Source: Thermoanaerobacter pseudethanolicus ATCC 33223
Lineage (GTDB): Bacteria > Bacillota > Thermoanaerobacteria > Thermoanaerobacterales > Thermoanaerobacteraceae
Direction: 5' to 3'
Length of the DNA: 64,000 nt
NCBI RefSeq assembly: GCF_000019085.1
Contig: NC_010321.1
Span: 1,124,501-1,188,500, forward strand
The first letter of the stretch is position 1; the number at the start of each line of letters is the position of its first letter. Below, piece after piece: positions 46,380-47,960 of this stretch. Both the position numbers and the translations under genes were made by a program. Below the pieces are notes generated by a model, which saw only the letters and a program-made list of their open reading frames with translations, did not search any database and had not been told where the DNA came from.

Positions 46380-47003
46380 TTGAAGTTTTTAAAAGGAAAT
46401 CTTTATTTGCATATTAAAAATAATTTTTTATTGTATGTATTAGCTGTAATGTGTTTAATGATAGGAATAGCAGCAGGATCTTTTACTGTTAATAACATTA
46501 CTGACATACAGATGGAACAAATAATAGGGTATATTTCAAAATTTTACCAAATTGCAAAATCTGTAGACTTGAATTCTTCTCAAATTTTTAAACAGTCGCT
46601 TTTAAATAATCTTGTCACTGTTTTTGCTTTATGGATTTTAGGGGCTACAATTATAGGGATTCCTTTTATATTTTTGCTTGTGGGGATAAGAGGTTTTATT
46701 TTAGGATTTTCTATTGGAGTTTTGATAAAAGAATTTGAAACAAAAGGGATACTACTCGTATTGATGGGAATTTTGCCTCAAAATATTTTTATCTTATTAG
46801 GAATCTTGTTTATATCTGTAACGGCTATTAATTTTTCTTTATATCTTTTGAAAAATCGCAAATTTTATTTAGAAGAATTAGTATCACAATTCGTATCTTA
46901 TACTTTTATGGTATATGCAGGGTTTTTAGTTATATTAATAGGCTGCTTGATAGAATCTTATCTTTCACCTTATATATTACTTTTACCGATTTTTTCACCA
47001 TAA
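46380..47003 (+). CDS. spoIIM: Stage II sporulation protein M
   Basis: A 207-residue polytopic membrane protein (about five helices) of the SpoIIDMP engulfment machine. GVLIKEFETKGILLVLMGILPQN is the typical core region in outline. Translation begins at TTG 46380 behind AGGGGG. The gene order spoIIM-xerD-like-dacF-spoIIA matches Bacillus apart from the genes between. Confidence 0.92.
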   Translation: MKFLKGNLYLHIKNNFLLYVLAVMCLMIGIAAGSFTVNNITDIQMEQIIGYISKFYQIAKSVDLNSSQIFKQSLLNNLVTVFALWILGATIIGIPFIFLLVGIRGFILGFSIGVLIKEFETKGILLVLMGILPQNIFILLGILFISVTAINFSLYLLKNRKFYLEELVSQFVSYTFMVYAGFLVILIGCLIESYLSPYILLLPIFSP

Positions 47004-47087: not shown

Positions 47088-47960
47088 ATGTTAAATAATG
47101 TGGTTGGGGAGTTTTTGGATTTTTTAACAAAGAACAAAAAACTGTCCAAAAACACTCTAGAATCTTATAACAGAGATATAAAACAATTTTTAAATTATCT
47201 TGAAGAAATCGGAATAAACTATTATAATGTCAAAAAATCGACAATACTAAATTATCTTTATTATTTAAAGAAAAAAGGTAAATCGCAAGCAACTGTTTCG
47301 CGAAATGTTTCTTCTCTCAAAGCCTTTTATCATTATTTATTTATGAAAAAGAAAATAGAAGAAGACCCAACGTACATGATTAATACCCCGAAAGTAGAAA
47401 AAAAACCACCTACTGCTTTAACAGTTGAACAGGTAGATATGCTACTTTCAATAGACTTTGGGAATGATGAAAAAGGACTTAGAGATAAGGCTCTTATTGA
47501 ATTACTTTATGCTACAGGACTTAAAGTCTCTGAAGTTATTTCTTTAAAATTAGAAGATGTGAATTTGTCTTATGGTTATGTAGTTATTCGTTCTAATAAA
47601 GAAAGAGTTATTCCTATAGGCTCTCATGCAATTGAAGCTTTAAAAAATTATATTGAAAAAGGAAGAAAAGCAAAAAATGGAGAAAATACTCTTTTTTTAA
47701 ATTTGCGTGGAGAAAAACTTACAAGACAGGGATGTTGGAAAATAATAAGAGAATACACTGATAAAATTAATCCTGGCTTTCCTGTTACTCCAAATACGCT
47801 AAGACAATCTTTTGCGCAGCATATGCTTCAAAATGGTGCAGATATTCGAGCTGTTCAAGAAATGTTAGGTTATCAAACAGATTTAAATACAAATTTACTT
47901 TCTTTAATTTCAAAATCAAAAATAAAAGAAGTTTATAATAAATTTCACCCTCGTGCTTAA
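47088..47960 (+). CDS. XerD-like tyrosine-recombinase homologue lacking catalytic residues
   Basis: A 290-residue protein with both XerD domains: an N-terminal core-binding domain (1-85) and a catalytic-type domain, ending KFHPRA exactly as in XerD. Aligned by eye with the XerD family, Arg I is Lys (ATGLKVSEV), the beta-hairpin Lys is Arg, the HxxR His is Asn (TPNTLRQSF), the late His is Tyr (EMLGYQ), and the nucleophile Tyr is Leu (NTNLLSL). Only the HxxR Arg remains. The frame is intact and well conserved elsewhere. It may be a DNA-binding pseudo-enzyme, in the usual xerD locus next to spoIIM. Confidence 0.88.
   Translation: MLNNVVGEFLDFLTKNKKLSKNTLESYNRDIKQFLNYLEEIGINYYNVKKSTILNYLYYLKKKGKSQATVSRNVSSLKAFYHYLFMKKKIEEDPTYMINTPKVEKKPPTALTVEQVDMLLSIDFGNDEKGLRDKALIELLYATGLKVSEVISLKLEDVNLSYGYVVIRSNKERVIPIGSHAIEALKNYIEKGRKAKNGENTLFLNLRGEKLTRQGCWKIIREYTDKINPGFPVTPNTLRQSFAQHMLQNGADIRAVQEMLGYQTDLNTNLLSLISKSKIKEVYNKFHPRA

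What the first reader, a model, noticed from the sequence alone, without database searches (positions are those of the whole stretch)
47088..47960. XerD-like protein that has lost five of six recombinase active-site residues yet stays intact
By alignment to the XerD family: Arg to Lys, Lys to Arg, His to Asn, His to Tyr and the nucleophilic Tyr to Leu; only the HxxR Arg remains. The fold-forming residues and the C-terminal KFHPRA are kept, as is the usual xerD position beside spoIIM. This suggests selection for a non-catalytic role such as DNA binding or regulation of a partner recombinase.
Basis: partly seen in the sequence, partly recalled or inferred. Interest (0 to 1): 0.8.

Follow-up and report, generated by a model that had tools for sequence, protein, structure and literature searches.

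The report
Dead XerD kept beside single-Xer system
A chromosome-maintenance recombinase in a heat-loving bacterium and its relatives has lost its DNA-cutting site, yet selection has kept the rest, including its DNA-gripping parts, apparently because another recombinase took over the cutting; nature may thus have isolated a second, non-cutting job of this protein.

Summary
The ORF at 47088-47960 is an intact spoIIM-linked XerD orthologue that has lost R148, H244, H270 and nucleophile Y279; the K172 hairpin is two residues shorter and only R247 remains. All intact copies in Thermoanaerobacter (9 of 10 genomes; one has a single-T frameshift) and all 9 in a sister genus share the loss of both histidines and the tyrosine. 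None of 97 other XerDs sampled lost H, R, H or Y. The dead clade is monophyletic, under purifying selection (dN/dS 0.07-0.08), and keeps the DNA-binding helix and C-terminal tail.

Two further results. (1) The genome's other Xer, with a full active site, lies at the GC-skew switch 55 kb away, beside a unique perfect 28-bp palindrome (11+6+11) shared across the order. It looks like an undescribed single-recombinase Xer/dif module; sister lineages with it have lost XerD. (2) In 16/16 dead-XerD genomes covered, terminus-proximal recX holds an invariant 13-mer, TATTATGTAAACT, matching the XerD half of Bacillus subtilis dif; the next longest invariant run is 5 nt. A relative without XerD has it broken.

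Best reading: a natural separation-of-function XerD that binds near the terminus without cutting, most likely unloading SMC. Binding and unloading are inferred, not shown.

The parts
47088..47960 (+). xerD-like gene, 290 aa, catalytically dead XerD orthologue
   Evidence: (TIGR02225 E 6.5e-98, 327.6 bits against a cutoff of 329.6)
47523..47525 (+). K146 at the catalytic R148 position
   Evidence: alignment
47583..47606 (+). shortened beta-hairpin (residues 166-173) where the catalytic lysine K172 would lie
   Evidence: alignment
47721..47741 (+). TRQGCWK (residues 212-218), start of the DNA-binding helix alphaK; R, Q, G, W, K invariant in dead and nearly all active XerDs
   Evidence: role of alphaK in XerH from PMC5241119
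47793..47795 (+). N236 at the catalytic H244 position
47802..47804 (+). R239, the one catalytic residue kept (R247)
47871..47873 (+). Y262 at the catalytic H270 position
47898..47900 (+). L271 at the nucleophile Y279 position
47946..47957 (+). C-terminal HPRA tail, conserved
46380..47003 (+). spoIIM, upstream neighbour (ancestral xerD locus)
   Evidence: TIGR02831, 197 bits
48025..49170 (+). D-alanyl-D-alanine carboxypeptidase (dacF position), downstream neighbour
   Evidence: named by sequence and position

Best explanation
The gene is a vertically inherited XerD that no longer cuts DNA. In this lineage chromosome dimers are most likely resolved by one other Xer, with a full active site, acting on a perfectly palindromic 28-bp dif-like site at the replication terminus. 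That released XerD from its catalytic duty. Some sister lineages lost XerD; Thermoanaerobacter and a sister genus kept it as a non-catalytic DNA-binding protein. It most likely binds the XerD half-site TATTATGTAAACT inside terminus-proximal recX, always in the same orientation, and acts there as a terminus factor, most likely in the SMC-unloading role known for Bacillus subtilis XerD. Shown by sequence: loss of the active site, purifying selection, retention of the DNA-binding helix, the Xer-palindrome module at the skew switch, the invariant half-site. Inferred: that the other Xer recombines the palindrome, that dead XerD binds the recX site, and that binding unloads SMC.
For: Shared, monophyletic loss of catalysis. 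dN/dS 0.07-0.08. DNA-binding helix TRQGxWK kept 18/18 while the nucleophile segment is erased. Full-active-site Xer orthologue in 37/37 genomes of the class. Unique palindrome in the order, at the cumulative GC-skew maximum within about 2 kb in six genomes. XerD lost in sister lineages that have the same module. Invariant 13-mer TATTATGTAAACT in recX of 16/16 dead-XerD genomes, next longest invariant run 5 nt, codon test p=0.0006; 0 of 2000 shuffled motifs shared by five genomes; broken in G010, which lacks XerD. SMC in 37/37 genomes. XerD unloads SMC at its binding sites in B. subtilis (cited in PMC12322038, PMC8242196, PMC10945525).
Against: No binding, recombination or SMC data. XerD half-sites are not enriched near the terminus overall, only one recX site stands out. 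The recX block could partly reflect protein constraint, since G010 keeps a similar peptide (HYNYYLNY). Lineages with SMC but without XerD show that the role is dispensable. The C-terminal 30 residues are modelled with low confidence. G010 is the only informative XerD-less genome for the recX site.
Confidence: 0.5

Rival explanations
1. Dead XerD is a structural or allosteric partner of the active Xer at dif: it joins the synaptic complex and controls the catalytic subunit without cutting.
For: The C-terminal tail that packs between subunits in Xer complexes is kept; XerC and XerD normally work in pairs.
Against: The candidate dif has two identical arms. G010 has the identical palindrome and an 80% identical Xer but no XerD. 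The palindrome does not resemble the XerD half-site.
Confidence: 0.15
2. Dead XerD has become a transcriptional or sporulation regulator, tied to its neighbours spoIIM, dacF and the spoIIA operon.
For: It sits in a sporulation cluster. DNA-binding parts are kept.
Against: The location is simply the ancestral xerD locus, as in active-XerD relatives. No candidate operator was found, and the conserved half-site lies inside the recX coding sequence, not in a promoter.
Confidence: 0.15
3. The gene is a decaying remnant on its way to loss.
For: The long stem branch (1.33 changes per site), the T. wiegelii frameshift and losses of xerD in sister lineages.
Against: 18 intact copies across two genera; dN/dS 0.07-0.08; 49 of 62 strongly conserved positions kept. 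The frameshift is one T in a homopolymer in one genome, with the rest of the frame intact.
Confidence: 0.04
4. The palindrome beside the active xer is an operator for autoregulation and not a dif site, so the takeover of dimer resolution by a single Xer is not established.
For: In most genomes it lies directly upstream of the xer gene. No recombination was tested.
Against: In G020 and G021 the site is 6.6 and 2.7 kb from xer yet conserved. It is 28 bp (11+6+11), AT-rich and at the skew switch in six genomes, like known single-Xer dif sites (PMC9765430). Distant relatives carry different palindromes beside their xer that share a CAAAAT-N4-ATTTTG core. No canonical dif stands out in the class.
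Confidence: 0.1

Closest known systems
XerD (RipX) of Bacillus subtilis: dimer resolvase and terminus SMC unloader
   Same: Orthologous family, same spoIIM-dacF locus, kept DNA-binding helix, and a half-site identical to the XerD half of B. subtilis dif (dif sequence and gene order from memory)
   Different: No catalytic residues except one Arg; no canonical dif in the genome; partner XerC replaced by an unrelated single Xer
XerD-like protein of streptococci (NF002685/PRK02436)
   Same: A XerD relative, by memory catalytically degenerate, living beside a single-recombinase system (XerS/difSL): the same evolutionary situation
   Different: Not the same family: 68.9 bits against a cutoff of 178; that model is 245 positions long; independent origin is inferred
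Single-recombinase Xer/dif modules (XerS/difSL, XerH/difH, XerL/dif of Legionella)
   Same: The host's other Xer: one recombinase, palindromic dif-like site at the terminus, linked to its gene in most genomes; XerL's dif also has perfect arm symmetry (PMC9765430)
   Different: A different Xer subfamily (XerS model 149.5 against cutoff 267, XerA model 206 against 220) and a different site sequence; function untested

Membership tests
XerD (TIGR02225 equivalog) | Score above the curated cutoff | tested here: not met
   327.6 bits against 329.6: a near miss over the full length
XerD (TIGR02225 equivalog) | Common descent with XerD | tested here: met
   Nested among XerD orthologues in the tree, at the spoIIM locus
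XerD (TIGR02225 equivalog) | Catalytic R, K, H, R, H, Y | tested here: not met
   K, R, N, R, Y, L
Active tyrosine recombinases | Nucleophilic tyrosine | tested here: not met
   L or I in all 18 intact copies
Streptococcal XerD-like (NF002685) | Score above the curated cutoff | tested here: not met
   68.9 bits against 178
SMC-unloading XerD | Conserved DNA-binding helix | tested here: met
   TRQGxWK kept in 18/18
SMC-unloading XerD | XerD-type binding site near the terminus | tested here: met
   Invariant TATTATGTAAACT in recX of 16/16 genomes covered; 11-19 kb from the terminus in the five genomes measured
SMC-unloading XerD | SMC complex present | tested here: met
   SMC in 37/37 genomes; ScpAB and ParB not searched
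SMC-unloading XerD | Binds the site and unloads SMC | not testable with these tools
   Needs EMSA, ChIP-seq and Hi-C
Single-recombinase Xer/dif (for the genome's other Xer) | One chromosomal Xer with a full active site | tested here: met
   C1:1227535-1228542 has R, K, H, R, H, Y; orthologue in 37/37
Single-recombinase Xer/dif (for the genome's other Xer) | Unique dyad-symmetric site of about 28-31 bp near the terminus | tested here: met
   28-bp palindrome, once without mismatch, at the skew switch
Single-recombinase Xer/dif (for the genome's other Xer) | Recombination at the site | not testable with these tools
   Needs a recombination assay

The most novel reading that the evidence does not exclude
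A natural separation-of-function XerD: after a single-recombinase Xer/dif module took over dimer resolution, XerD was kept across two genera solely as a sequence-specific, non-catalytic terminus factor (SMC unloader) acting at a nucleotide-invariant XerD half-site embedded in the recX coding sequence.
Probability: 0.4. Interest if true: 0.88.

Novelty: new variant of a known kind. Interest (0 to 1): 0.77.

Why it matters
XerD's role in unloading SMC is hard to separate from its role as a recombinase. Here evolution appears to have done so: the catalytic site is gone, while the DNA-binding parts and a candidate binding site are frozen. If true, it gives a clean natural system for studying SMC unloading. 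It also predicts an undescribed single-recombinase dimer-resolution system, with its exact dif site, for a whole order of thermophiles, and explains why XerD is lost, killed or kept in related lineages.

Tried and rejected
XerD half-site enrichment around the terminus: none. Canonical Firmicutes dif in the class: no excess over the reversed-pattern control. Scan with E. coli dif: noise. Membership in the streptococcal XerD-like family: rejected. Pseudogene: rejected. Dead XerD as obligate partner of the active Xer: disfavoured, because G010 has the identical site and an 80% identical Xer but no XerD. The B. subtilis SMC-unloading paper itself is not held; later papers that cite it were used.

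Full report
OBSERVATION. The ORF at 47088-47960 is intact. Against E. coli XerD it reads K, R, N, R, Y, L at the R148, K172, H244, R247, H270, Y279 positions. The lysine call is uncertain because the hairpin is two residues shorter, and K172 also varies in six XerDs that keep H, R, H, Y. The gene sits between spoIIM (TIGR02831) and a carboxypeptidase gene at the dacF position. The window is C1:1124501-1188500 of a 2,362,816-bp genome.

DISTRIBUTION. All 10 genomes of the genus have the gene. Nine are intact. One (G001, contig length 2,785,056, equal to T. wiegelii Rt8.B1) has a T7-to-T6 frameshift. All 9 genomes of a second genus, g3, have it at about 62% identity. I take g3 to be Thermoanaerobacterium, by inference. 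Names seen include T. thermocopriae and Caldanaerobacter subterraneus. In a survey of 115 XerD sequences (18 dead copies, 96 other loci and the E. coli reference), only the 18 lack both histidines and the tyrosine; all 97 others keep H, R, H, Y. In a 77-row tree the dead rows form one clade (support 100*) inside XerD on a long stem (1.33 changes per site), far from the other Xer. Active orthologues occur in relatives, including a genus at class level (g7, probably Caldicellulosiruptor by inference, about 44% identity).

SELECTION. Counted by Nei-Gojobori, dN/dS is 0.074 and 0.080 in the two genera, against 0.098 and 0.071 for spoIIM, 0.044 and 0.021 for the active Xer, and 0.047 for active XerD of g7. 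The gene is constrained like an ordinary gene, somewhat less than the active enzymes. Of 62 positions at least 95% conserved in active XerDs, 49 are kept. The 13 lost include four of the five catalytic residues in that set, H248 beside the HxxR arginine, and D272, I273, T275, T276, Q277 of the LGHxDISTTQIY segment. The helix TRQGxWK is kept in all 18. The corresponding helix alphaK of XerH enters the major groove (PMC5241119). The C-terminal KIKEVYxKxHPRA matches the active consensus. The AlphaFold model has mean pLDDT 86.8, with the last 30 residues near 64. Foldseek's best PDB matches are XerA, XerD and an archaeal Xer.

WHO RESOLVES DIMERS. The genome has six Phage_integrase matches. One, C1:1227535-1228542 (open frame of 335 codons), has R, K, H, R, H, Y and an orthologue in 37/37 genomes of the class. 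The cumulative GC skew peaks at about 1,228,500, at that gene. The same coincidence occurs within 0.8-1.8 kb in G001, G003, G010, G018, G019 and within 5.6 kb in three g7 genomes. Beside the gene lies ATTATACGAAA-TAGTTA-TTTCGTATAAT, a perfect 28-bp palindrome (11+6+11) apart from its two central bases, which vary. It matches without mismatch exactly once per genome in nearly all of the order; G015 has one mismatch, G021 two, and G023 none, its xer being cut by a contig end. In G020 and G021 it lies 6.6 and 2.7 kb from xer, so it is not merely an operator of xer. g7 and two further lineages carry other palindromes beside the orthologous xer with a shared CAAAAT-N4-ATTTTG core. No canonical Firmicutes dif stands out in the class. 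Single-recombinase systems with linked sites are known (XerS, XerH), and Legionella XerL has a dif with perfect arms near the skew maximum (PMC5357621, PMC9765430). I found no report of one in this order in the open-access library searched.

CONSEQUENCE FOR XERD. G010, G020 and G021 have spoIIM but no xerD after it, and G022 and G023 lack xerD as well. So with the single-Xer module present, XerD has been lost, killed or kept. This argues against dead XerD as a necessary partner.

WHERE IT MAY BIND. I searched the terminus for the XerD half of B. subtilis dif (sequence from memory). Half-sites in general are not enriched. But one exact TTATGTAAACT within 40 kb recurs in all five complete dead-XerD genomes checked, always inside recX, 11-19 kb from the terminus, in the same orientation. 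With more genomes it is present in 16/16 dead-XerD recX genes covered. Across these genes, whose proteins fall to 43-45% identity, the longest invariant nucleotide run is exactly TATTATGTAAACT (13 nt); the next is 5 nt. Its four codons are the same in all 16, against 2 of 25 other invariant-residue codons (p=0.0006). Codon identity at shared residues elsewhere between the genera is about 0.42-0.53. None of 2000 shuffled 13-mers is shared by the five genomes. In G010, without XerD, recX reads TACTATTTAAACT, and in G020 the RecX frame lacks this N-terminal part. The palindrome of the active Xer does not resemble this motif.

MECHANISM. Dead XerD plausibly binds the recX site without cutting. In B. 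subtilis, XerD bound at its sites unloads SMC at the terminus (Karaboja 2021, as cited in PMC12322038, PMC8242196, PMC10945525). My memory is that this needs neither its catalytic residue, nor XerC, nor dif; I could not read that paper. SMC is found in all 37 genomes. SMC unloading is therefore the leading but untested function.

CONFIDENCE BY STEP (my judgement). Dead and under selection: about 0.95. Single-Xer/dif module: about 0.85. Binding to the recX site: about 0.65. SMC unloading: about 0.4.

Noticed in passing
genome C1:1227496-1227523 (outside the window, L100) with xer at C1:1227535-1228542 (L030): Candidate dif of an undescribed single-recombinase Xer system: unique perfect 28-bp palindrome beside an Xer with a full active site, exactly at the GC-skew switch.
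   Followed up: partly
genome C1:86016-86043, L312; also L310, L311, L313: Degenerate copies (2-3 mismatches) of that palindrome lie about 1 kb upstream of a 417-aa tyrosine integrase in several genomes: possibly a mobile element with a dif-like site.
   Followed up: partly
L306, L307, L308, L309: Another near-palindrome, ATTATACGAAATCATAATTTCG(G/T)ATAAT, recurs in different gene contexts downstream of similar repeat-rich ORFs; origin unknown.
   Followed up: partly
L021/L068 (T. wiegelii): One T missing in a T7 run shifts the frame of the dead xerD; sequencing error, phase change or real loss not decided.
   Followed up: partly
L151 (G010): In place of xerD, an unrelated ORF of about 224 codons lies between spoIIM and dacF.
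   Followed up: no
L053, L261: Two XerDs that keep H, R, H, Y have R148 changed to K, so this position is not a safe marker of inactivity on its own.
   Followed up: no
G002, L036 and L041: At least seven near-identical matches to a 384-codon ORF with a weak tyrosine-recombinase match: probably a multi-copy mobile element.
   Followed up: no
PDB 9i5v chain 14 (not a locus): A 401-residue chain named ribosome-associated inhibitor RaiA matches the XerD profile over residues 7-297: apparently a XerD-RaiA fusion, or a naming oddity.
   Followed up: no
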